IMG/VR virus record: IMGVR_UViG_3300020020_000141
Location: 1-27,006 of that record
Length of the DNA: 27,006 nt
Strand: one strand, 5' to 3'
Origin: a virus
Shown piece by piece: positions 9,919-21,808 of the stretch (position 1 is its first letter; every line of letters starts with the position of its first letter). The translations under genes and the position numbers were made by a program. The notes under the pieces are model-generated. The model worked only from the letters and a program-made list of their open reading frames with translations, ran no database searches and was not told the DNA's origin.

Positions 9919-10626
9919 ATGGACGTAATAATAACCTGTGCAATTGCCGAAACATCTGTAACCTTACATAATGCAACGGTTTATCCTCCACACGTGAGAA
10001 GCGATTATGCTGCTCTTATGTATGTTAATGCCAAAAGAACTACAGGAGATTCTCCTTTAATTGTAAATACTCCTAATGCTCTTACTACTAATGACTGGGT
10101 ATTTGACCCTATGGCTGATAATTATTATAAAGCCGAATTGCTTATGATACCTACTTGGACTACTGCTGTTAGTGGTCCTAATGGAGCTGAATATAATCAA
10201 CATCCTATAACTGCTGGAACTCTTGTATATTATAATGGTACGTTTTATCGTGCTGTAAATGAAATACTATTTAATGGAACTTATACTACTCCTGATATTG
10301 ATTATAATAATTGGGAAATACTTGATATCACAAATATCGAAGATGTTTATGATGAATTAATGATGCCTTATTTTCCTCCTTATGCTCAAACCTTTTATGG
10401 TTTTAAAGAGTTTGTATTTTATAATAACCTTGTATATGCATTTCTGAATCTCTCTGCTGAGATTACTAAGAGTTGTAATATATGTGCTAATCCACAAATT
10501 GAAGAACTACGTTGCCTAAGAGATAAATACGAAAGTGTTGAACTTGCTGTTGCAGCAGGTAATTACTCAGGAGCACAAACTATTATCGAATCATCTGAAA
10601 ACCTTGTTAATTCCTGCTCATGCTAA
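9919..10626 (+). CDS. Fibre-module protein with carbohydrate-binding-like segment
   Basis: 235 residues, first gene of the fibre module. The overall family is not recognised. Residues 100-132 follow the pattern G-x-x-V-x-Y-x-x-x-x-Y-x-A-x-x ... W (GTLVYYNGTFYRAVN, then NNWE), which resembles the small aromatic three-stranded carbohydrate-binding fold of chitin-binding type 3 / CBM5-12 domains; this is a similarity of pattern only. The C-terminus has Cys at 186, 189, 199, 233 and 235 (SCNIC, RC, CSC), which could bind metal or form disulfides. A helix-like region (IEELRCLRDKYESVELAVAAG) lies between them. Its last 7 bases overlap the next gene, implying translational coupling and perhaps a joint complex. 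Possible fibre adaptor or base. Confidence 0.5.
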   Translation: MDVIITCAIAETSVTLHNATVYPPHVRSDYAALMYVNAKRTTGDSPLIVNTPNALTTNDWVFDPMADNYYKAELLMIPTWTTAVSGPNGAEYNQHPITAGTLVYYNGTFYRAVNEILFNGTYTTPDIDYNNWEILDITNIEDVYDELMMPYFPPYAQTFYGFKEFVFYNNLVYAFLNLSAEITKSCNICANPQIEELRCLRDKYESVELAVAAGNYSGAQTIIESSENLVNSCSC

Positions 10627-11063
10627 CAATTGCTCAAGTAGATTTATTTCAGGCGCAACTTCAAACTAAGATGCTTGAAGTGGCTCTTGAACAAGCTAAA
10701 GCTGAACTTAATGATGACTATGAATGTGCCAAAGTTCATCAATGTACTTACAGGTTTCTAACTATATATTATGCTGTTTTTACTAATCCTCTTTTTAATT
10801 ATACTATGGCTGAAACGGAAGCCATGATTAATTGGATTAGTACTATTACAATGTTGAATGAAGTAGTTCCAGTATCATTTACTAACTACACAACTATAAA
10901 TACGGGTACAGACCATACACATAGTATCTCTCAGATTATAGGATTGCAAGCTGCGTTAGATGATTTGCAATTACAGATAGATAATATTCAAGCTACCGAT
11001 ATAGAAATTATAGGAGGTGGGTCTGCTAATGTAACTGATTTTTATCCTCCATATCAATATTAA
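10620..11063 (+). CDS. Small fibre-neck or fibre-adaptor protein
   Basis: 147 residues; the start codon overlaps the last 7 bases of the previous gene. The N-terminal 40 residues form a likely helix (QVDLFQAQLQTKMLEVALEQ). At residues 99-115 there is HTHSISQIIGLQAALDD, which strongly resembles the H-x-H ... G-L-Q-x-A-L-D motif found in the neck of many trimeric phage tail fibres, where a short triple coiled coil follows a metal-binding His region. A Gly-rich stop (IIGGGSAN) and an aromatic end FYPPYQY close the protein. This suggests a trimeric neck or adaptor that carries the following fibres. The motif is visible; the precise role is inferred. Confidence 0.6.
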   Translation: MLTIAQVDLFQAQLQTKMLEVALEQAKAELNDDYECAKVHQCTYRFLTIYYAVFTNPLFNYTMAETEAMINWISTITMLNEVVPVSFTNYTTINTGTDHTHSISQIIGLQAALDDLQLQIDNIQATDIEIIGGGSANVTDFYPPYQY

Positions 11064-11076
11064 TTAAGATAAAATT

Positions 11077-12249
11077 ATGCCTACACAATATAAAACACGA
11101 ATTCTTTTACGTACTGATACAAGTAGTAATTGGACTAGTATGAACCCTACTCTTAAACTTGGAGAGATGGGTTTTGCTATAGACAATGGTGTTGTAATTG
11201 GCGGTAAGGTAGGAATGGATAAAACATGGAATTCTACACCATTTCATTTTACAGCCTTTCAACCTATTGTAACTAATTACGGTAGAAATCTTGATGAAGG
11301 TAAAAGTGGACCTCCCTATAATGCACAACATAATTTCCAAACTGAGACTGAAGCTTGGGAATATGTTCTATATCCTTATTCACCACCATCTGTAGGAATG
11401 CCTGCTAGTATTATATGGGATGCAGAAGTAGGAGATACTTTTAATAACTATGCTCCTGTTGGACAAGCTGGTACTTATCCTTTTGATTTTTATGTTTATA
11501 ATACTCCAACTCTATTTCCTGAAAAAGTATCAGGAGTAGATAAAAAGGTATACTACGTTTCTACTCCTTTTGCTCCTGTTACTCCTCTTCAAATTATAGG
11601 AGGTACTGCTACTAAATATGCATTGACAGACCAGACTAGTAATACCGCATATCAAGTTCATAATGCTCCTATTAAAGCTAACCGTGATACAACTGGTACA
11701 GAAAACGTATTTACTGCATTTGTTAGAGGTAAGAAAGATCCTACTAATGTTAATAGTGTATATCAAGCAAGTGCCTATGTAAGATTTAGAATACGTTCTA
11801 ATGCTTTCTTATGGAAATCAAATGATGAACTTCTTAATCCTGGTACTTATACTGATGCTCAACTATCTAGTATATTAAGAAGCCTAGGTTCATCTGGAGA
11901 TATGGCTGGGGTTAGATATAATAATATGGCTGATGGTAGTGGTAGCAAAATATTTAACGGAGGTAATACTATAACTTGGAATACAACAGCTCTTACTAGT
12001 ATTGTACCTGCTCCTCCGGCTGCTGCTGGACATGGAGGATTCTTTAATATTTGTATAGCTGTTCCTTCAGGTGCAGGATTACCTATTGTGTATAATGCTG
12101 CATCTGACCCTTCTAATCCTATGACGTTTAGTACACCACGTAATTTCATGTATAGTAATGGTACTGCAACTGGTGCAAAAGCTATTCCATATACTTTATA
12201 TTTGGTTGCTCAACCAATTACAGGAACATTATCAGTTAAAATGATATAA
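11077..12249 (+). CDS. Fibre protein with Mtd-like N-terminal domain
   Basis: 390 residues. Residues ~6-56 carry a motif common at the start of phage fibre and hyaluronidase-type proteins and seen in the N-terminal domain of the Bordetella phage Mtd adhesin: KTRILLRTDTSSNW, NPTLKLGEMGFA, then KVG and TWNSTPF. In known fibres this region forms a small trimeric domain at the virion-proximal end. The rest is beta-rich with many Pro, Gly and Thr (PFAPVTPLQIIGGTATKYAL, then SIVPAPPAAAGHGG) and ends in a short LSVKMI strand. No catalytic motif is visible. It sits directly after the neck-like protein and 9 bases before another fibre gene, so it likely contributes a receptor-binding or connector segment. 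crAss-like phages carry both head and tail fibres, so attachment site is not decided. Confidence 0.65.
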   Translation: MPTQYKTRILLRTDTSSNWTSMNPTLKLGEMGFAIDNGVVIGGKVGMDKTWNSTPFHFTAFQPIVTNYGRNLDEGKSGPPYNAQHNFQTETEAWEYVLYPYSPPSVGMPASIIWDAEVGDTFNNYAPVGQAGTYPFDFYVYNTPTLFPEKVSGVDKKVYYVSTPFAPVTPLQIIGGTATKYALTDQTSNTAYQVHNAPIKANRDTTGTENVFTAFVRGKKDPTNVNSVYQASAYVRFRIRSNAFLWKSNDELLNPGTYTDAQLSSILRSLGSSGDMAGVRYNNMADGSGSKIFNGGNTITWNTTALTSIVPAPPAAAGHGGFFNICIAVPSGAGLPIVYNAASDPSNPMTFSTPRNFMYSNGTATGAKAIPYTLYLVAQPITGTLSVKMI

Positions 12250-13382: not shown

Positions 13383-15425
13383 ATGGCTACATATAAAGTA
13401 AAACTAGCATGTCGGAAAGATAATGAAACTAATTGGAATAATGAAAACCCAACTCTCATTAGTGGAGAGTTGGGCATTGCTACGCATAATGTAAAAGGTA
13501 CAGAACTTGTAAAAGGCATAAAGGTTGGAGCAGGTTTAGCATGGATAGATACTGATTATGTTTCATTAGTTGATGTAGATAGTCTTGTTCCCCTTGTGAT
13601 GAACTCATTTGGAGACTCTCCTTCTATTAACTTTTATTATGATTCTACTGATGGTCTTTATAAATTTGAAGTATTAACTGAAGGAATTGACCATATTACA
13701 GATGTTACTCATGCTGATATTTTGGCTAAAATAAATGCAGGTACGTTAACTATAAGTAGTTTCTATAGAATTACTGATTATCGGACAGTTCATATGATTC
13801 CTTATACTAATGTAGCACCTAGTATAGCAGCTATTAATACAGGTCCTGAAGAACCACTTGTTATGCAAGCTATTAATATAAATGCATTATCTAGTGTTGC
13901 TCAATCTGCATTATATCCTCAAGATGTTATCTATTATGATGTAATGAATGTTTTATGTGAGGATGGTATTACTCCAAGAAAAGGTAAAATAACTTATAGA
14001 AAAGATACTGCAAAAAATCTTGAAACTTATTATGATTTTAGAAACGTTAAGTTTAGACGTTGGAAAGTTAATCCTGCTGCATGGGTAGCAGGTACTCCTT
14101 ATTCAAGAGGTGCAGCAGTTTTAGCTTCTGATGGTGGTGTCTATGTTTCAAAGAAATTTGGTAGTAATTCAAATGTAGGAAATGACCCTAATTTAGCAGC
14201 ATATACAACACCAGGAAATCCAGCACCTTCAGAATGGGCAGTTAAAACAGATGCAAATTGGCTTAAAGTATTAGTACCAAGTCGTACTTTTTATTTAAGT
14301 ACAAGTCCAGTATCCTTTCCTTTAGGCTTTGCAACTATTCCTGCATTAGCAACTGATTTTCAAGATTCTTATACTTTCACCACAAGTATAGCCGGAAGTG
14401 GTGGGGGAGCAATGCGGAATATTTCAATAGGTTTAGCTTCAACATATAATAATATAATCTTTATAGATAGTTCTGTTAATGGAACAAGTCCTGCAAATTC
14501 AGCCGGTGATGGTAATTCATTTCACGATAATACATTTGATTTGAATTGTACCAATATGACTTTCACCAATGGGAATGTTTTTGGAAATAGCTTTGGGCAA
14601 TTATGTACAAGTAATATAATTCAAGGTGGATTTAATTTTAATCTTTGTGATAATAATTTTTCTTATAATCATTTTGTATTAGTTAGGTCGGGTGGTTATG
14701 CCCCTGTAAATAGAAATTTCTTTGCTTCAAGTTGTACTTATAATATTTTTAATCCTGAAACTCAATATAATGAATTTGAAGGACTTATTTTTCAAAATTC
14801 ATTTGAAGTACAAACTTCTGCTAATGAAATGCGAGGTTCAAGTTATCAATGCAATTTTGGTTATGGGTGGAAAAGCAATAAAACAGAAGAAACATATCAA
14901 CTTCAATGTGGCAATACTTGTGAATATAATAGATTCAGTGCAAGAATAAGTAATATAATTATAGGTAATGCTTATAGGCATAATACAGCAACTAATTTAA
15001 ATGGAACTGCATTAGGGAATTCTGTAATTGGAAATAACGTTCAGCAAAATGTAATTGATGGAATGCAAACTAATATGAATTTACCTGATGGATTTCAGTT
15101 CAATTCAATTAAAGGGGTATTTGCAGCCGGAACTACCTTTGCAATAAACAGCAGCAAAAACACTTTTAATAATGATTTTGGAGGAGGTACTTTAGCAATA
15201 CCACTTAATCTTAATAATTGTGTATTTAATAAGCCAGTATCAGGAATGCAGGTAGCTAATACAGGAGTAGTTCTTAATGGTATTATAAGTCTTGTATCTA
15301 TTACTTCTAAGACTTTTCCTATATCATTAACTAATGAGGTAATATCTGCTATATCACCTGATGGTTCTTTATGGGCACATGGAACAGACGATACAGGACA
15401 CGTAACCGCTGAAAAAATTGTATAG
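13383..15425 (+). CDS. Array fibre 1: Mtd-like N-terminus plus beta-helix adhesin
   Basis: 680 residues, the longest of four tandem paralogues. Residues ~4-60 are an Mtd-like virion-proximal motif (TNWNNENPTLISGELG), absent from the other three. A module shared by all four follows: an FYRITDYRTVHMIPYT-type segment, CEDG at 192-195, KITYRKDT, and FRRWK at 224-228, then a W/Y-rich insert (about 232-275) of carbohydrate-binding type. Residues ~340-630 are a repetitive Asn/Phe/Gly-rich region (units such as GNSFG and NTFNN) typical of a right-handed beta-helix, as in phage tailspikes. The C-terminal cap SPDGSLW (658-664) and DDTGH is shared with the others. Likely a trimeric receptor-binding protein; no lyase or hydrolase residues can be assigned. 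It ends in TAG, two bases before the next gene. Confidence 0.7.
   Translation: MATYKVKLACRKDNETNWNNENPTLISGELGIATHNVKGTELVKGIKVGAGLAWIDTDYVSLVDVDSLVPLVMNSFGDSPSINFYYDSTDGLYKFEVLTEGIDHITDVTHADILAKINAGTLTISSFYRITDYRTVHMIPYTNVAPSIAAINTGPEEPLVMQAININALSSVAQSALYPQDVIYYDVMNVLCEDGITPRKGKITYRKDTAKNLETYYDFRNVKFRRWKVNPAAWVAGTPYSRGAAVLASDGGVYVSKKFGSNSNVGNDPNLAAYTTPGNPAPSEWAVKTDANWLKVLVPSRTFYLSTSPVSFPLGFATIPALATDFQDSYTFTTSIAGSGGGAMRNISIGLASTYNNIIFIDSSVNGTSPANSAGDGNSFHDNTFDLNCTNMTFTNGNVFGNSFGQLCTSNIIQGGFNFNLCDNNFSYNHFVLVRSGGYAPVNRNFFASSCTYNIFNPETQYNEFEGLIFQNSFEVQTSANEMRGSSYQCNFGYGWKSNKTEETYQLQCGNTCEYNRFSARISNIIIGNAYRHNTATNLNGTALGNSVIGNNVQQNVIDGMQTNMNLPDGFQFNSIKGVFAAGTTFAINSSKNTFNNDFGGGTLAIPLNLNNCVFNKPVSGMQVANTGVVLNGIISLVSITSKTFPISLTNEVISAISPDGSLWAHGTDDTGHVTAEKIV
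13448..13474 (+). other. Intragenic 10-bp perfect hairpin in first array fibre
   Basis: Stem 13448-13457 with 13465-13474 (arms CCCAACTCTC and GAGAGTTGGG) and 7-base loop ATTAGTG, 65 bases after the start codon, within the codons for the NPTLISGELG motif. No U-tract follows. Confidence 0.55.
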
Positions 15426-15427
15426 CT

Positions 15428-16819
15428 ATGACAAAGATAAAACAAGCACTGCTAACTGAGGCAACTCCTCCTGTTTCCGGTACATATACTGCTATTGCTG
15501 CATTAAAGAGTTCTAATAGTCTAGTTCCTGGAGCTTATTATACTATAACTGATTTCCAAACTATTCATATTATACCTAATACTTCTGCTTTATGTGTACA
15601 AGGTACAGTATATGAAATTAAAACAAATTGGACTAATACTTTATCAGAAGGAGTAGAACCATTAACTTTAATAGCTTTAAGTAATAATACTTTTGGAGGA
15701 AGTGTAACTTCTCTTAATAATCCTACTGATCAAATCTTATATGATTTTACTAAGAATCTTTGTGAAGATGGAGTAACAGCAAGGAAGGGTCAGATAACTT
15801 ATAGGAAAAATACTACTTATAATATCGAAGCCTATTTCGATTGGATGAATCATAGATTCAGAAGATGGAAAATTAATCCTCAAATTTATAATGCAGCTAC
15901 TACTTATAATGCTAATGATATTGTAGCAGATGTAAATACAATTTACATTTGTCAGCAGAATGGTACGGTTGGAATACCATTAGGAAGCGATGTAAAAAGA
16001 TGGCTTACTTTATATGATAGAACTGGGTTCTCAGGTTATGGAATTCTTACGGATTGGGTTGCTACAACACCAACCAATTTTAAAATTGCCGGTTATGCCG
16101 TACCAGTTGATTCTTCAAGTTTTGGCGATTTTCTTGCAATTAGCAGAGCAATTGGAGCAGATGGTAGGTCGCATAGTTTAATACTTTCACAAGGAGTTTT
16201 AAATAATATTTCAATTGGCAAATGTGTAACCGATCCTAATCTATACAATAATATTGTTATCTGTATTGGAAATACTGCTTTTGGATTTTACTGTAAAAAT
16301 GTACGATTTGCTGCGAATTGTAAAAACATGACTTTTAGTTTTGCTTTGGAAGATTCTACTTTCCATGCTGCTTGCTATGATAATCTATTTAGATATGCTA
16401 TAATTTCAAGTCAATTTTTTGGACCTGTTTATAATTGTTGCTTATTATATCACTTCCAAAAGGTAGTAGCAATGAGTGAATTTATGAATAATGTAGGTTC
16501 ATTTTCATATTGCTTTTTTGGTAGATTTGTTTACAATAGTCATTTCAATAGTGGTGCTTCAAATTTTGTATGTACTAATGAAATTGAAGGTTGCAAGTTT
16601 GGAGCAGGAATTGGACGTTTAGATGCAGTTCAACTTTATAAATCTAATTTTTGGGGAGTTCTAACTGATATTAAATTTACTGTTGGAGTAAGAAATGTAA
16701 CTCTAAATGGAACTTATGATGGCTACAATAAAGTAGTTAATATGGTTTCTCCTGATGGCTCTCTTTGGGCTAGTGCTATTGATGATACTGGACACTTTTC
16801 ACCTGAAAAACTTATATAA
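15428..16819 (+). CDS. Array fibre 2: beta-helix adhesin, Cys-rich middle
   Basis: 463 residues. It starts straight at the shared module, without the Mtd-like leader of array fibre 1: SLVPGAYYTITDFQTIHI near residues 30-50, CEDG at 112-115, QITYRKN, and FRRWK at 144-148, then a Y/W-rich insert (NAATTYNANDIV ... IYICQQNG ... W). Residues ~255-430 form the variable middle; short strands alternate with turns as in a beta-helix, but with 13 Cys in the whole protein, many about 9-21 residues apart, instead of long Asn ladders. The C-terminal cap SPDGSLW (441-447) and DDTGH matches array fibre 1. Likely a trimeric adhesin with its own receptor range. Two bases separate it from genes on either side. 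Disulfides would need oxidising conditions; the Cys may simply be buried. Confidence 0.7.
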   Translation: MTKIKQALLTEATPPVSGTYTAIAALKSSNSLVPGAYYTITDFQTIHIIPNTSALCVQGTVYEIKTNWTNTLSEGVEPLTLIALSNNTFGGSVTSLNNPTDQILYDFTKNLCEDGVTARKGQITYRKNTTYNIEAYFDWMNHRFRRWKINPQIYNAATTYNANDIVADVNTIYICQQNGTVGIPLGSDVKRWLTLYDRTGFSGYGILTDWVATTPTNFKIAGYAVPVDSSSFGDFLAISRAIGADGRSHSLILSQGVLNNISIGKCVTDPNLYNNIVICIGNTAFGFYCKNVRFAANCKNMTFSFALEDSTFHAACYDNLFRYAIISSQFFGPVYNCCLLYHFQKVVAMSEFMNNVGSFSYCFFGRFVYNSHFNSGASNFVCTNEIEGCKFGAGIGRLDAVQLYKSNFWGVLTDIKFTVGVRNVTLNGTYDGYNKVVNMVSPDGSLWASAIDDTGHFSPEKLI

Positions 16820-16821
16820 TC

Positions 16822-18636
16822 ATGGCAGGTATAAAACACGCATTGTATAGTGAAATAACTTCATCTGTTTCAGCACTTCATTCTGCTATCCTTACTCTAA
16901 AGAATAGTAATAGTCTTGTACCAGGAGCTTATTATAAAATAACTGACTTTCAAACAATCCATATAATTCCTAATACAACGTTAGAGCCAAGTACAGCTGC
17001 ACTTGCTGTAAATGGAGTTACTGTTGGTAATCCTTTTGGATGGGATCCTAATAAACCTATTAAAAATGAAGGGGTTGAAGAATTAATTATATTAGCAATT
17101 ACTCCTTCTGCTTTTTCTCCTGTAGCTTATTCCCCTTCATTTCCTACAGATATAATTCATTATAATTTTAATGATATATTATGTGAAGATAATTTAACTC
17201 CAAGAAGAGGTAAGATAGTATATAGAAGAGATACTATTTTAAATATAGAAGCTTACTATGATTGGAGAAAGGTTATATTCAGACGATGGAAACTAAATGC
17301 TCCTGTATGGGCAATAAATACAGATTATGGAAGAGGTGCAATAGTTAAAGGTTCAGATGGTAGTACATATATTTCTAAAAGAGCAGCTAATAGAAATAAT
17401 GATCCAATTAGTGCACCGTGGCTTGGTAATACAGGTTGGAATGGCGGAGCAAATATAAATAGTATTTGGTGGGAAAAAATAGTTGTAGCTAGTAAAAATA
17501 ACTATCTTGGTACTTTACCTACACAAGTTACAATAGCTAGTGGAACTTGTCCTACTATTGCTAATGATTTTGTAGACTATTATACTTTTAATACTTCAAC
17601 TATAGGAGACAAAGGATTGATAAAAAATATTAAAATAGGTACTCATTCTACTTATAATAATATTATTTTTATTAATTCTTTAGTAAATTGGAATCAAGTA
17701 CCTGATAATAATGAATCTGTTTTTAATAATCATTTTGATGATGGTTGTTCTGATTTTACTATTTTAGGATGGGGGAATAATAATAATACATTTGGTCTTG
17801 GATGTACCAATAATATACTTCAAGGGTCAGTTAATAATAATGACTTTGATGCTGCTTTTAATGCTAATCTTTCTATTTATTCTGATTATCAATCATTAGG
17901 AGCTATGGCTCAAAATAAAGTTGCAGCTGGTTTTAGTAATAATGTTTTTAATAGTCAATTTCAGTATAATACTGTAATGGCAGGTTCATACTTATCTAAT
18001 AATTTCTTTGGATTTGATTTTGCTAGAAATTCTATTCAAGGACATTTTTATACTAATTCTATTAATAAGGCTTGTAGTGATAATACTTTTCAATTTATGA
18101 ATAGTAATAATCTAGGAGATAACTTTCAACACAATGTAATATATGGTGGTGGTAATGCTGATAATAGTTTTAGAAATACAACTGTTGGAAATGATTTTAA
18201 ATTTAATTTAACTAGAAGTTTTATTAATTGTGTCGTTGGAAATACGTTTCAATATAATCTTATTGAAAGTGGACTCTTTAAAGGTATAACTATACTAGAT
18301 GGTTTTCAATATAATAAGTTTTATGGAACAGTAACAGCAGGTACTAGTTTTGCTATAAATACTAATAAGAATACATTTATGGGTGTCTTTGGTGGAGGTA
18401 CTGTTTCAGTTCCATTATTATTAACTGAATGTGTATTTAATCAACCAGTTGTAGGATTACAATTTACAAGTACTGGTGTTCTTCTTGCTAGAGTTGTTTG
18501 TAATTGTGCTATTACAAATAAGACTATTTTATCTATACAAACAAATAATACAATTACTGCTTCACCTGATGGAAACCTTTGGGCATCAAATACACAAAAT
18601 ACTACAGGTACTATAACAAACACTTTAATAACTTAA
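16822..18636 (+). CDS. Array fibre 3: Asn-rich beta-helix adhesin
   Basis: 604 residues. The N-terminal module is closest to array fibre 2 (SLVPGAYYKITDFQTIHI, one difference across this stretch), with CEDN at 121-124, KIVYRRDT and FRRWK at 153-157, then the W/Y-rich insert (YGRGAIV ... TYISKRA ... W). Residues ~290-545 hold a clear repeat of roughly 10-12 residues of form N-x-F-x-x-N (NNVFNSQFQYN, NNFFGFDFARN, GNTFQYN), the asparagine/phenylalanine ladder expected of a right-handed beta-helix. The last rungs (FQYNKFYGTVTAGTSFAIN, then FGGG) parallel those of array fibre 1, while the N-terminus resembles fibre 2, giving a mosaic look. The C-terminal cap is SPDGNLW (581-587), with a slightly altered tail ending NTLIT. 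Likely adhesin. Confidence 0.7.
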   Translation: MAGIKHALYSEITSSVSALHSAILTLKNSNSLVPGAYYKITDFQTIHIIPNTTLEPSTAALAVNGVTVGNPFGWDPNKPIKNEGVEELIILAITPSAFSPVAYSPSFPTDIIHYNFNDILCEDNLTPRRGKIVYRRDTILNIEAYYDWRKVIFRRWKLNAPVWAINTDYGRGAIVKGSDGSTYISKRAANRNNDPISAPWLGNTGWNGGANINSIWWEKIVVASKNNYLGTLPTQVTIASGTCPTIANDFVDYYTFNTSTIGDKGLIKNIKIGTHSTYNNIIFINSLVNWNQVPDNNESVFNNHFDDGCSDFTILGWGNNNNTFGLGCTNNILQGSVNNNDFDAAFNANLSIYSDYQSLGAMAQNKVAAGFSNNVFNSQFQYNTVMAGSYLSNNFFGFDFARNSIQGHFYTNSINKACSDNTFQFMNSNNLGDNFQHNVIYGGGNADNSFRNTTVGNDFKFNLTRSFINCVVGNTFQYNLIESGLFKGITILDGFQYNKFYGTVTAGTSFAINTNKNTFMGVFGGGTVSVPLLLTECVFNQPVVGLQFTSTGVLLARVVCNCAITNKTILSIQTNNTITASPDGNLWASNTQNTTGTITNTLIT

Positions 18637-18640
18637 TATT

Positions 18641-20152
18641 ATGACAAATACAGAGCAAACTCCCTATATTATATCGAATTATTCTGCTATTAAATCTTTA
18701 AAAGATACAGGGAGTCTTGTAGCAGGAGGTATATATCAAATATCTGATTATCAAACTAAGCATAGAATTGCTGGAACTACTGAAATACATGAAGGTCCAA
18801 TGGAGACTTTAACTCTTAAAGCCCTTACATATACTACATTTGATACTTTTGTTATTTCATCACTTTATCCTAATGATATTATTAAGTATGATATAACAAA
18901 TGTTTTATGTGAAGATGGAACTACACCTAGACCTGGATGGATTACTTATAGGAAAGATACGATTCTTGGTAATGAGGTTGAAGGGTTCGATTTTAGAAAC
19001 GTTGTATTCAGACGTTATAGATTAGTTGTTCCTCTTTGGGATTCACAAGTTGCTACTACAGGTTATACTGTTGGGTCTGTTGCACATAGTGGAGGAAACT
19101 ATTATATTTCTACTAAGAAAGGTTTAAATACTGGTGCTCTTGGTAGTGCTGGATGGTCTTTTATGCAAGTCTTTCAAACTGATAATATATATTCTCATGA
19201 TGGACTTTGGAAGTTTTTAGCAACACCTGCACCAACTACTAACTTTTCAGTAAATACTGCTGATTATAAAGATTACTTAATATTTAATACTACTTATAAA
19301 GATGTAGCAAGTGGTAGTAAATATGATTTATTTAAAGGTACAAACAATAGAATACTTGGTGGTAGTACTGCTTCAGATATAGTTTTCATCCCATCAGGTG
19401 ATGGTGTTAATGTTAAAAACAACACTATTGGATATGGTTGTAGTAAATGGACTTTTTGGAAATCTGATAACTGTCAAGGTAATATTATTGGAAATGGTAG
19501 TAATGGTGTATTTATGTATGGCTCTGTTACTAATAATCAACTTGGTGCAAATTTTAGTAATCACTTTTGTGCTGAAACCTTTATGAATAATATTACAGAA
19601 ACTTCCGTTACTGGATGTTTCTTTGGGTTCTTAACGGGATTAAATAAACTAGCTTCCAATCTGACAAATTGTATATTTGGACTAAAGGTTGAATCTAATG
19701 ATATTTGTTGTGTTGAAAGTCTTGTTACTGGTGGATTATTTGCAGGTAATAAATTCTTAGGTGGTTATCTTCCTCTCAATTCATATCCATACGCTAAATC
19801 ATATATGAATGGTATGTATTTTGGTGATTTTTGTAGTGGTAATACATTTGTTGCTCAAGATACAAAAGAAGTATATTTAGGTAGTTATACTATTAATAGT
19901 ATATTTAACTCGAAACTTGATAATTTCGGAAGTTCAACTACACCAGTAGTTGTAAGTAGTTGTGTAATAAATTCTCCATTAACTAACGTCAATTCCGGTA
20001 CATTAACTAATGTAGTTATTAATACACCTATTACTGGTAAAACATTACCTGCATTAACTAATAAAGTTGTTTCGCTAACTTCTCCTGATGGTAGAGTTTG
20101 GCAGTCAAGTATTGATAATGCAGGTGTAATAACTAATACTGTAATCGTATAA
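18641..20152 (+). CDS. Array fibre 4: beta-helix adhesin
   Basis: 503 residues, four bases after array fibre 3. The shared module is the most diverged of the four: SLVAGGIYQISDYQTKHRI, CEDG at 90-93, WITYRKDT, FRRYR at 123-127, and an insert with GYTVGSVAHSGGNYYISTKK ... W. The middle (about 220-440) is Asn/Phe/Gly-rich with beta-helix-like units (NNTIGYGCSKW, GNIIGNGSNG, GNTFVAQ). The C-terminal rungs (NSPLTNVNSGTLTN, then LPALTNKVVSL) lead into the cap SPDGRVW at 481-487, ending NTVIV. The role is probably the same as its paralogues: a trimeric receptor-binding fibre. Lower similarity suggests it is the oldest duplicate or an import from another phage; neither can be decided here. Confidence 0.68.
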   Translation: MTNTEQTPYIISNYSAIKSLKDTGSLVAGGIYQISDYQTKHRIAGTTEIHEGPMETLTLKALTYTTFDTFVISSLYPNDIIKYDITNVLCEDGTTPRPGWITYRKDTILGNEVEGFDFRNVVFRRYRLVVPLWDSQVATTGYTVGSVAHSGGNYYISTKKGLNTGALGSAGWSFMQVFQTDNIYSHDGLWKFLATPAPTTNFSVNTADYKDYLIFNTTYKDVASGSKYDLFKGTNNRILGGSTASDIVFIPSGDGVNVKNNTIGYGCSKWTFWKSDNCQGNIIGNGSNGVFMYGSVTNNQLGANFSNHFCAETFMNNITETSVTGCFFGFLTGLNKLASNLTNCIFGLKVESNDICCVESLVTGGLFAGNKFLGGYLPLNSYPYAKSYMNGMYFGDFCSGNTFVAQDTKEVYLGSYTINSIFNSKLDNFGSSTTPVVVSSCVINSPLTNVNSGTLTNVVINTPITGKTLPALTNKVVSLTSPDGRVWQSSIDNAGVITNTVIV

Positions 20153-20162
20153 AAATAAAATC

Positions 20163-20843
20163 ATGGCTGTAGTAAATCACACTTTTCCTTATAGAGGACT
20201 TAGCATAGATGTTTCATCAGGTGATGCAAAGAATCATGCTTATATTAAATTTGCAGAAGAAGGTGTTCAAAGAGAATATCTTATTGAAGGTGTAAAGACT
20301 TCTAAGACTAGACAAGAAGTTATTATCTTCTATCTCAAACATTTTAAAGATGATGCAGGTAATATTCTTAATCAAGATATTGAACAACAACTTATATTAA
20401 CTTCACAGATTAGCACTGAAGATTTATATAATTCACCTGCTAATAAAGTTGGAGAGAAACGAGATCAACTAAGTGTTAATGGTTTATTAATGCTTCTTAA
20501 AGGAGTGCAATGTTTTTCAAATGAAGATGATACTTTCTATCCGCCTATTACAGCAGATACAGTAAGTACTAATTGTACATTTACACTAGTTCCTCTTGCT
20601 CCTCCAGAAGGTAGTAGTATGCCTCCTGCTTCTAGTTATGAATCAAATGATGATGGTACTATAACAGTATCTCCAGTTGACATACTTGGTGTGCCAACCT
20701 TTACAATTGTTGAAACAGCAGCAACTAATGCAGAAGGTATATTTACTGATCTCCCTGCCGGTAAGTATACTATTTTGGTAGAGTCTGATGGTGCTGAAAT
20801 GCCTTTTAAAATGATAGTTGAAGTAGGGAGCGAGTATCTTTAA
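20163..20843 (+). CDS. Fibre-module closing protein with Ig/Cna-B-like C-terminus
   Basis: 226 residues, last gene before the terminator at 20857. Residues 1-125 are mixed alpha/beta and unrecognised (KFAEEGVQREYLIEGVKTSK, a helical LTSQISTEDLYN part, then LSVNGLLMLLKGVQCF). A Pro/Ser linker (about 143-165) leads to a C-terminal beta-domain whose GIFTDLPAGKYTILVE segment (about 191-206) is the typical G-x-F/Y-x-x-L-x-x-G-x-Y-T-x-x-V strand-turn of Cna-B / carboxypeptidase-regulatory-like or SprB-like Ig folds. Such domains are common surface-adhesion modules in Bacteroidota phages. It is probably a fibre-associated chaperone, tip or decoration protein. Composition and placement support co-expression with the four adhesins. 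Confidence 0.55.
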   Translation: MAVVNHTFPYRGLSIDVSSGDAKNHAYIKFAEEGVQREYLIEGVKTSKTRQEVIIFYLKHFKDDAGNILNQDIEQQLILTSQISTEDLYNSPANKVGEKRDQLSVNGLLMLLKGVQCFSNEDDTFYPPITADTVSTNCTFTLVPLAPPEGSSMPPASSYESNDDGTITVSPVDILGVPTFTIVETAATNAEGIFTDLPAGKYTILVESDGAEMPFKMIVEVGSEYL

Positions 20844-21183: not shown

Positions 21184-21579
21184 ATGATAGATATGCATCC
21201 AGTCGCATTTATAATAAGAGAAATGCTAAGAAGTAAAGTACTAACATTAATCTTAACAGTATCGGGAGGATTACTCATAGAAGAATCTCTTCCTTTTCTA
21301 GCTCACATGCTAAAGATTAAACCCAAACCCACTGTAAGTATGACAACCATTACTAGAGCTAGAAAAGAGAAAGATGCTCTTATACCTGTGGTTGATAGTC
21401 TTACTAAGCGTATTGAAAAGCATCCAACTAAAGAAACTGTTTATAGAACTATCAATGAGAAAGTTTATAATGTTACTCACAATGCTACTAATGCTCAACT
21501 TGACAGCATACTCACAAATTATAAGTATGAACCGTTCACAAAAAAAGGAGATAGCGAAAGGTTTGATAGGTTTCGATGA
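21184..21579 (+). CDS. Single-pass membrane protein, candidate inner-membrane spanin
   Basis: 131 residues. A single hydrophobic segment (about residues 18-42, KVLTLILTVSGGLLI onward) follows a short N-terminus with two Arg, giving the N-in/C-out topology of inner-membrane spanins (Rz-type), which link the inner to the outer membrane in the last step of lysis. The ~90-residue exported part is charged and helical (RARKEKDALIPVVDSLTKRI, then QLDSILTNY), as expected. Its 3' end overlaps a second ORF in another frame that also encodes an export-competent protein, an arrangement known from Rz/Rz1 genes. No holin or endolysin is adjacent, so the lysis role is inferred from topology and overlap. A holin-like or tail-membrane protein is the alternative. 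Confidence 0.5.
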   Translation: MIDMHPVAFIIREMLRSKVLTLILTVSGGLLIEESLPFLAHMLKIKPKPTVSMTTITRARKEKDALIPVVDSLTKRIEKHPTKETVYRTINEKVYNVTHNATNAQLDSILTNYKYEPFTKKGDSERFDRFR

Positions 21580-21808
21580 ATGTAAGATAGCCTTATATGA
21601 TTCTTATAGAGAAAGAGATGCACTTAAATACGCCTTTGCAGTTGAACATGAAACTGTACAACTCTATGATGAAATCTATAAAGGACAACTGATTGAAAAT
21701 GGAACTCTTGTTAATGAAAATAAAAAGCTTAAAACTGCTAGAATTCGTTGGAGAGTTTTTGCTATTACTAGTACTATACTTGGTTTTTATATAGGAACAC
21801 AACTATGA
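21455..21808 (+). CDS. Secreted/anchored small protein overlapping previous gene, candidate spanin partner
   Basis: 117 residues from the ATG at 21455, which starts inside the previous gene in another frame and runs 126 bases within it. I chose this start because it gives a good signal peptide: MRKF, a hydrophobic run (IMLLTMLLMLNL), then TAYSQ, a typical Bacteroidota cleavage site. An in-frame ATG at 21374 would add 27 residues and a second hydrophobic stretch; one at 21527 would remove the signal. There is no lipobox Cys, so it is not a classical Rz1 lipoprotein. The mature part is charged and helical, and residues ~97-117 (WRVFAITSTILGFYIG) form a C-terminal membrane segment, recalling one-protein spanins that bridge both membranes. 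The stop overlaps the next start (ATGA). Confidence 0.5.
   Translation: MRKFIMLLTMLLMLNLTAYSQIISMNRSQKKEIAKGLIGFDECKIALYDSYRERDALKYAFAVEHETVQLYDEIYKGQLIENGTLVNENKKLKTARIRWRVFAITSTILGFYIGTQL

What the first reader, a model, noticed from the sequence alone, without database searches (positions are those of the whole stretch)
13383..20152. Four tandem paralogous fibre genes: conserved ends, variable beta-helix middles
Seen directly: four adjacent genes, gaps of 2-4 bases, all have the SLVPG/ITD(F/Y)QT, CEDG/N, YR(K/R)(D/N) and FRR(W/Y) segments in the same order, and a C-terminal SPDG-x-(L/V)-W cap. Between these the middle differs in length and sequence. Such a layout suggests duplication followed by exchange of the receptor-facing middle, giving one phage several adhesins that may recognise different capsules or surface glycans. 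I know of no named description of this four-gene array; novelty is inference.
Basis: partly seen in the sequence, partly recalled or inferred. Interest (0 to 1): 0.75.

Follow-up and report, generated by a model that had tools for sequence, protein, structure and literature searches.

The report
Four mix-and-match phage fibre genes
A crAss-like virus of bacteria carries four side-by-side copies of a fibre gene whose shared front part is attached to different, demonstrably swapped sugar-binding-module-plus-rod parts, one of them shared almost intact with an unrelated virus; this is a new and clean example of the known way in which phages reshuffle the parts they use to recognise host cells.

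Summary
In detail: four adjacent genes (13383-20152, gaps 2, 2 and 4 bases) are paralogues (blastp E down to 1e-121). The key interpretation, exchange at module borders, was tested and holds. Trees of the N-domain, the middle and the C-terminus reject one another (AU P<=0.023), and four-fold degenerate sites jump at the borders, so this is more than faster amino-acid change. g1's middle is 84% identical (aa) to a fibre in an unrelated, non-crAss phage, while its N-domain is 56%. g4 and its counterpart in the only sister crAss-like phage found share the N-domain (77% aa) but not the middle (29%). That sister's MCP is 97% and portal 88% identical, yet its locus has three fibre genes, not four. 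Corrections: the middle is a CBM5/12-like module plus a beta-solenoid of about 18 residues per turn; the C-terminal tip has its own history; only g1 carries a recognisable virion-docking domain; traceable relatives point to Bacteroidota hosts such as Pedobacter, not specifically gut. The family is unnamed but common (62 non-redundant members, arrays in several other phages). It works like the four-tailspike array of Ackermannviridae without being one. Receptor binding is inferred.

The parts
13383..15425 (+). Fibre gene g1 (680 aa)
13383..13562 (+). g1 N-terminal docking domain (Mtd_N-like), the only one among the four genes; also in 11077-12249
13695..14060 (+). g1 N-domain (conserved platform, ends at FRR)
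   Evidence: HMM; pLDDT 69-97 by ten-residue block
14079..14273 (+). g1 CBM5/12-like module (WVAGTPYSRGAAVLASDGGVYV...)
   Evidence: sequence motif; homologous to the structurally matched module of g2
14298..15245 (+). g1 beta-solenoid middle, about 18 residues per turn; with the CBM 84% aa identical to L019 fibre
15333..15422 (+). g1 C-terminal SPDG-x-L-W tip, closest to sister phage gene Lb (77%)
15428..16819 (+). Fibre gene g2 (463 aa)
15476..15865 (+). g2 N-domain
15878..16024 (+). g2 CBM5/12-like module (residues 151-199)
16061..16717 (+). g2 solenoid middle, about 18 residues per turn
16727..16816 (+). g2 C-terminal tip
16822..18636 (+). Fibre gene g3 (604 aa)
16867..17286 (+). g3 N-domain
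17308..17490 (+). g3 CBM5/12-like module
   Evidence: motif
17524..18531 (+). g3 solenoid middle
18544..18633 (+). g3 C-terminal tip
18641..20152 (+). Fibre gene g4 (503 aa), counterpart of L020:7808-9238
18674..19015 (+). g4 N-domain; 77% aa identical to the sister phage, similarity drops exactly at FRR (residues 122/124)
19037..19160 (+). g4 CBM5/12-like module
   Evidence: motif
19193..20050 (+). g4 solenoid middle (not shared with its sister counterpart)
20060..20149 (+). g4 C-terminal tip
15354..15582 (+). Junction repeat copy 1: tip of g1, stop, start and N-terminus of g2
   Evidence: 71% identical to 16748-16976
16748..16976 (+). Junction repeat copy 2: tip of g2, stop, start and N-terminus of g3
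20163..20843 (+). gD, downstream gene; homologue (50%) lies near the g1-like fibre in the unrelated phage L019; possible accessory or chaperone
   Evidence: function inferred
11077..12249 (+). gU1, upstream gene with Mtd_N docking domain
   Evidence: PF18454 E 3e-6

Best explanation
A recombining array of host-recognition fibres in a crAss-like phage. Each gene encodes a conserved N-domain platform, a CBM5/12-like carbohydrate-binding module, a beta-solenoid rod of variable length (about 18 residues per turn) and a C-terminal hairpin tip. Copies arose by tandem duplication. Since then the CBM-plus-solenoid part, and separately the tip, have been replaced by recombination whose joints lie in or near the conserved segments (the CEDG to FRR stretch, the C-terminal shoulder, perhaps the tip/stop/start/N-terminus junction repeat), both within the array lineage and with unrelated phages. 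Most likely (inferred) the fibres are attached near the tail and bind surface glycans, so that the phage presents four different binders; g1 docks through its own Mtd_N-like domain and g2-g4 attach by their short N-termini or to other fibre proteins.
For: SHOWN: paralogy. Sister phage L020: TerL 94%, MCP 97%, portal 88%, rings 84-91% identical, but the fibre locus is 3 genes against 4 and only 38-48% identical. g1 vs the fibre of the non-crAss phage L019 (different portal family, head protease, Erf): N-domain 56% aa, middle 84% aa and 86% nt; four-fold sites identical 5/22 vs 75/112, Fisher P 2e-4. g4 vs Lc: N-domain 77%, middle 29%; four-fold 33/39 (as in the backbone) vs 10/23, P 1.3e-3; break at FRR. 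Lb: N-domain nearest g3 (64%), C-shoulder and tip nearest g1 (70/77%). AU tests: each region's tree rejects those of the other two, P 0.023 or less. CBM5/12: g2 residues 151-199 vs chitin-binding domain 2d49, TM (target) 0.75, rmsd 1.6; 1wvv Z 6.5, rmsd 1.6 over 47. INFERRED: adhesin role from position beside the crAss ring and muzzle genes (PF25702, PF24228, PF25731), beta-solenoid/tailspike-like models, Mtd_N on g1 (E 0.0025, below Pfam's cut-off) and weak tail PHROG hits to that region.
Against: No direct binding, host-range or virion data. The solenoid models have pLDDT about 40-75, and no Foldseek PDB match reaches E 0.001. Solenoid alignments between paralogues are weak, so break-point positions are approximate. 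MaxChi permutation P values assume exchangeable sites and overstate certainty where conservation varies; the four-fold-site and AU tests were added for that reason. Only one sister phage was found. No donor was found for g2 and g4 middles. Some N-domain identity could be purifying selection.
Confidence: 0.77

Rival explanations
1. The four proteins are structural subunits of one composite (branched or heteromeric) fibre rather than four alternative adhesins: g1 docks by its Mtd_N-like domain and g2-g4, which lack a recognisable docking domain, stack on g1 or on each other through the conserved N-domain and tip.
For: Only g1 has a docking-like N-terminus; g2-g4 start 11-16 residues before the N-domain; crAss001 fibres form multi-protein inner and outer assemblies on gp22 (PMC10172136). 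In L020 none of the three has the Mtd_N domain.
Against: Paralogues free to exchange middles and vary from 3 to 4 copies are harder to fit into a strict hetero-complex; in other phages one N-domain fibre often stands alone. Compatible with the main explanation if the complex only serves to display several binders.
Confidence: 0.3
2. The conserved/variable pattern is only purifying selection on the N-domain and relaxed or diversifying selection on the middle, without exchange.
For: N-domain more conserved than middle in nearly all paralogue pairs, in 8 of 9 arrays; only the L067 pair is equal.
Against: Four-fold degenerate sites change at the borders; g1 has the reverse pattern with L019 (middle more similar than N-domain); trees conflict.
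Confidence: 0.07
3. The solenoid is an enzymatic depolymerase (tailspike) and each copy degrades a different polysaccharide.
For: Second-look structural matches include phage tailspikes and polysaccharide lyases (Z about 10-12, rmsd 3.4-5.8); crAss001 gp22 is annotated polygalacturonase/tailspike.
Against: No lyase or hydrolase family hit in Pfam, NCBIfam or PHROGs; pentapeptide-repeat and designed solenoids score as well or better (Z 10-14); about 18 residues per turn is a narrow coil with little room for an active-site groove; the models are of low confidence.
Confidence: 0.15
4. The middle is a length-variable spacer (rod) and specificity sits in the CBM5/12 module and tip; exchange mainly changes reach and glycan preference.
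For: In relatives the rod changes by whole turns: L070 vs L071 are about 99-99.8% identical at the flanks and differ by 216 nt = 72 aa = 4 x 18; strong 9/18-residue periodicity; CBM fold match.
Against: In the window the rods differ in sequence, not only in length; the CBM is absent from some family members that keep the rod (for example L031:5127-6704).
Confidence: 0.3

Closest known systems
Ackermannviridae TSP1-TSP4 tailspike array (CBA120, S117; PMC8432352, PMC11414711)
   Same: Up to four tailspike genes together; conserved N-terminal parts, variable receptor modules, a conserved motif proposed as recombination site, same module found on different TSPs and in distant phages.
   Different: Ackermannviridae TSPs have XD anchoring domains and large beta-helix depolymerases in contractile-tailed enterobacterial phages. 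Here: crAss-like phage, unnamed N-domain, CBM5/12-like module, narrow solenoid, no XD or enzyme family detected by the profile searches, and paralogy detectable along the whole length.
Crassvirales tail fibres of crAss001 (gp22-gp26; PMC10172136, PMC10136315)
   Same: crAss-like ring and muzzle genes flank the array; the tail-spike region of Crassvirales is described as strikingly diverse in number and type of genes.
   Different: In crAss001 the fibre genes lie between portal/gp21 and MCP and carry five different annotations; here four paralogues lie between gU2 and the ring/muzzle genes, after MCP.
Shared host-recognition module of Alteromonas phages A5 and V22 (PMC10579305)
   Same: Tail fibre and neighbouring accessory protein shared between phages of unrelated backbone; here g1's middle and gD are shared with L019.
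   Different: Different fibre fold; single fibre, not a paralogue array; gD has no demonstrated chaperone role.
DGR-diversified tail fibres and BACON repeats of crAss-like phages (PMC12386605, PMC6949934)
   Same: Diversification of crAss-like tail proteins.
   Different: In the window no TR/VR-like repeat was found, and no family hit to a reverse transcriptase among the proteins scanned; exchange is by recombination of modules.

Membership tests
Crassvirales (crAss-like phage backbone) | crAss-type TerL, portal, MCP, ring and muzzle genes | tested here: met
   phrog_6681, phrog_6547, phrog_11589, PF25702, PF24228, PF25731; listed best matches about 26% in portal and 25-27% in MCP to database crAss phages, so a distant branch
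Crassvirales (crAss-like phage backbone) | Placement in a named family by whole-genome or TerL phylogeny | not tested
   window is a 27-kb fragment with partial TerL
Ackermannviridae-type four-TSP array | Several adjacent tailspike genes with swappable receptor modules | tested here: met
   (adjacency and exchange; that the modules bind receptors is inferred)
Ackermannviridae-type four-TSP array | XD1/XD2/XD3 anchoring domains | tested here: inconclusive
   no Pfam or PHROG hit on g2-g4 beyond one weak unknown family; N-domain has only H9NBX6 as strong structural match in BFVD; no direct XD comparison
Ackermannviridae-type four-TSP array | Contractile-tailed Ackermannviridae backbone | tested here: not met
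   backbone is crAss-like
CBM5/12 carbohydrate-binding module | CBM5/12 fold | tested here: met
   g2 151-199: 2d49 TM(target) 0.75 rmsd 1.6; 1wvv Z 6.5 rmsd 1.6 over 47
CBM5/12 carbohydrate-binding module | Profile hit above curated cut-off | tested here: not met
   only g2 hits PF02839, 12.9 bits vs cut-off 26.2, E 0.12; so 'CBM5/12-like'
CBM5/12 carbohydrate-binding module | Binding of chitin or another glycan | not testable with these tools
   needs protein
Beta-helix tailspike depolymerase | Right-handed parallel beta-helix with catalytic family signature | tested here: inconclusive
   solenoid models at low confidence, tailspikes and pentapeptide repeats both match; no enzyme family hit
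DGR target protein | VR/TR repeat pair and reverse transcriptase nearby | tested here: not met
   within the 27-kb window self-blastn shows only the fibre paralogues and no RT hit appears among proteins scanned; the rest of the genome is not available

The most novel reading that the evidence does not exclude
The conserved blocks (N-domain ending at FRR, C-terminal shoulder, and the tip/stop/start junction repeat) are maintained as recombination joints, making the array a standing cassette-shuffling device: CBM-plus-solenoid cassettes and tips are swapped among copies and captured from unrelated phages of the same hosts, and rod length changes by whole 18-residue turns, within living phage populations.
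Probability: 0.3. Interest if true: 0.68.

Novelty: new variant of a known kind. Interest (0 to 1): 0.5.

Why it matters
Crassvirales fibre regions are known to be hypervariable, but how they vary is poorly traced. Here a sister pair with 88-97% identical core capsid genes and an unrelated phage sharing one fibre middle show module-by-module exchange with identifiable joints. It also defines a widespread, unnamed fibre family (62 non-redundant members in viral contigs, plus Pedobacter and Mucilaginibacter genomes) with a CBM5/12-like module, which can be expressed and tested for glycan binding and host recognition.

Tried and rejected
DGR as source of variation: no TR/VR repeat or RT hit in the window (and family scans). 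Sequence-based homologues in the PDB: none significant with the four-copy profile. Close relatives of g2 and g4 alone in viral contigs: none confirmed. More sister phages through ring and muzzle proteins: only L020 again. NCBIfam: no hit. Whole-chain Foldseek on g1 and g2: no PDB match at E 0.001; the absence of a PDB match for the N-domain is not proof of a new fold, as it was never folded or searched alone. The loose CBM regular expression (46 of 62) gives false positives and is not used as a count. Gut origin: not supported, not excluded.
Full report
OBSERVATION. The window is the whole of a 27,006-base virus record. Four ORFs at 13383-15425, 15428-16819, 16822-18636 and 18641-20152 are adjacent, on one strand, with gaps of 2, 2 and 4 bases. 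They are paralogues along their length (alignment).

SETTING. The record is a crAss-like structural cassette: TerL end, portal (phrog_6547), MCP (phrog_11589), then upstream fibre-type genes, the array, gD, ring proteins 2 and 1 (PF25702, PF24228) and the start of the muzzle (PF25731). Listed best portal and MCP matches to database crAss phages are about 25-27%, so it is a distant branch. In crAss001 the fibre genes gp22-gp26 lie between portal and MCP and are differently annotated genes; here the array sits downstream of MCP, close to rings and muzzle. The fibre family's hits in sequenced genomes are Pedobacter, Mucilaginibacter and two Bacteroidetes/Bacteroidia MAGs, and a cultured relative is Sphingomonas phage PAU gp99. 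A Bacteroidota host is likely; a gut origin is neither shown nor excluded.

ANATOMY. (1) g1 only: about 100 extra residues with an Mtd_N-like docking domain (E 0.0025, below Pfam cut-off), shared with upstream gene 11077-12249, which passes the cut-off. (2) N-domain, ending at FRR(W/Y), modelled with high confidence (g2 blocks 84-98 pLDDT); its only strong structural match is a viral protein, H9NBX6, 130 columns at 2.4 A, which I take to be PAU gp99 from the sequence hit. (3) A CBM5/12-like module: g2 residues 151-199 match the chitin-binding domain of Streptomyces griseus chitinase C (TM on target 0.75, rmsd 1.6) and ChiC/ChiB chains (Z about 6, rmsd 1.2-1.9 over 46-48). By sequence only g2 gives a sub-threshold PF02839 hit, so '-like'. 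(4) A beta-solenoid: strands in the g1 model recur at 464, 482, 500, 517, 535 (about 18 residues per turn), and the sequences show lag 9/18 periodicity, weak in the window (z about 2-4) and very strong in relatives (z 14-22). Second-look structural matches are pentapeptide-repeat and designed solenoids and phage tailspikes (Z 8-14), but pLDDT is only about 40-75. (5) A C-terminal SPDG-x-(L/V)-W hairpin tip.

EXCHANGE TEST. I compared g1-g4 with the three array genes of the only sister phage found (La, Lb, Lc = L020:4375, 6146, 7808) and the fibre X17 of L019. Sister backbone identity: MCP 97%, TerL 94%, portal 88%, rings 84-91%; fibres only 38-48% and three genes, not four. Region identities: g1-X17 N-domain 56%, CBM 81%, solenoid 85%, tip 57%, while X17's N-domain is nearer g3 (60%). 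g4-Lc N-domain 77%, solenoid 25%, break at FRR. Lb N-domain nearest g3 (64%), C-shoulder and tip nearest g1 (70%, 77%). La-g3 diverge evenly, so not every pair is mosaic. MaxChi break-points lie in or near the conserved segments. ML trees of N, middle and C regions reject one another by AU test, P 0.023 or less in all six comparisons; the more conservative SH test keeps two of the six (P 0.057 and 0.084). Four-fold degenerate sites: g1-X17 5/22 identical in the N-domain vs 75/112 in the middle (P 2e-4); g4-Lc 33/39 vs 10/23 (P 1.3e-3), the former equal to the backbone. Selection on protein sequence alone does not explain this. L019's phage has a different portal family, a head maturation protease and an Erf recombinase, and no phrog_6547 portal anywhere in its 38-kb record, so the g1 middle moved between unrelated phages. 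gD has a 50% homologue near that fibre too.

POSSIBLE JOINTS. A 229-nt direct repeat (71%) spans tip, stop, start and N-terminus at the g1/g2 and g2/g3 junctions (15354-15582, 16748-16976). Such repeats and the N-domain stretches (13883-14152 vs 17109-17378, 71%) are plausible sites for homologous exchange; that they are the actual joints is inference.

GENERALITY. An N-domain profile finds 119 ORFs (62 non-redundant) in the window and fetched loci, with tandem or clustered copies in L010, L020, L023, L029, L031, L039, L065 and L067. In these the N-domain is more conserved than the middle in nearly every pair. The near-identical contigs L070 and L071 differ by 216 nt, 72 aa or four 18-residue turns, inside the solenoid, so rod length changes by whole turns.

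MECHANISM. Shown: duplication, module exchange, transfer between unrelated phages. Inferred: attachment near the tail, glycan binding through CBM and/or solenoid, four binders per virion. Whether g2-g4 dock by themselves or through g1 is open. An enzymatic role has no family-level support.

KNOWN KINDS. The nearest working analogue is the four-TSP array of Ackermannviridae, with receptor modules exchanged at a conserved motif (PMC8432352). Fibre modules shared between unrelated phages are described in Alteromonas phages (PMC10579305), and diversity of Crassvirales tail-spike regions is reviewed in PMC10136315. I found no paper naming this family in seven searches of an open-access library, which is not proof of absence. 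I rate it a new variant of a known kind.

Noticed in passing
window 21184-21579 and 21374-21808: Two ORFs overlap in different frames and both are conserved in the sister phage (57% and 66% aa); the first has an N-terminal hydrophobic helix, the second a signal-like N-terminus. They resemble an overlapping Rz/Rz1-type spanin pair (inference; the real start of the second is probably near 21455).
   Followed up: partly
window 10620-11063 and L020:956-2092: The first ~93 residues are shared (44%) but the rest is unrelated: a short protein in the window, a 378-aa protein in the sister phage; another graft on a common N-terminal domain.
   Followed up: no
L070:9803-11863 and L071:9803-11647: Near-identical phage contigs whose fibre solenoid differs by 216 nt, exactly four 18-residue turns.
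   Followed up: partly
L065:1243-2898 and L065:4556-6499: Two fibre paralogues with 98% identical N-domain and 97% identical C-terminal 35 residues but solenoids of different length and sequence (77% over the alignable part).
   Followed up: partly
L072:9767-11659: After FRRW, where relatives have the CBM5/12-like module, there is a long (GSS)n run.
   Followed up: no
contig behind L031 (235,318 bases, handle G004): Carries the fibre family at many places (17 matches, at least seven genes), several in arrays.
   Followed up: no
window 20163-20843 and L019:10479-11150: gD, 50% identical between the crAss-like window and the unrelated phage that shares the g1 middle; may travel with the fibre as accessory or chaperone.
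   Followed up: partly
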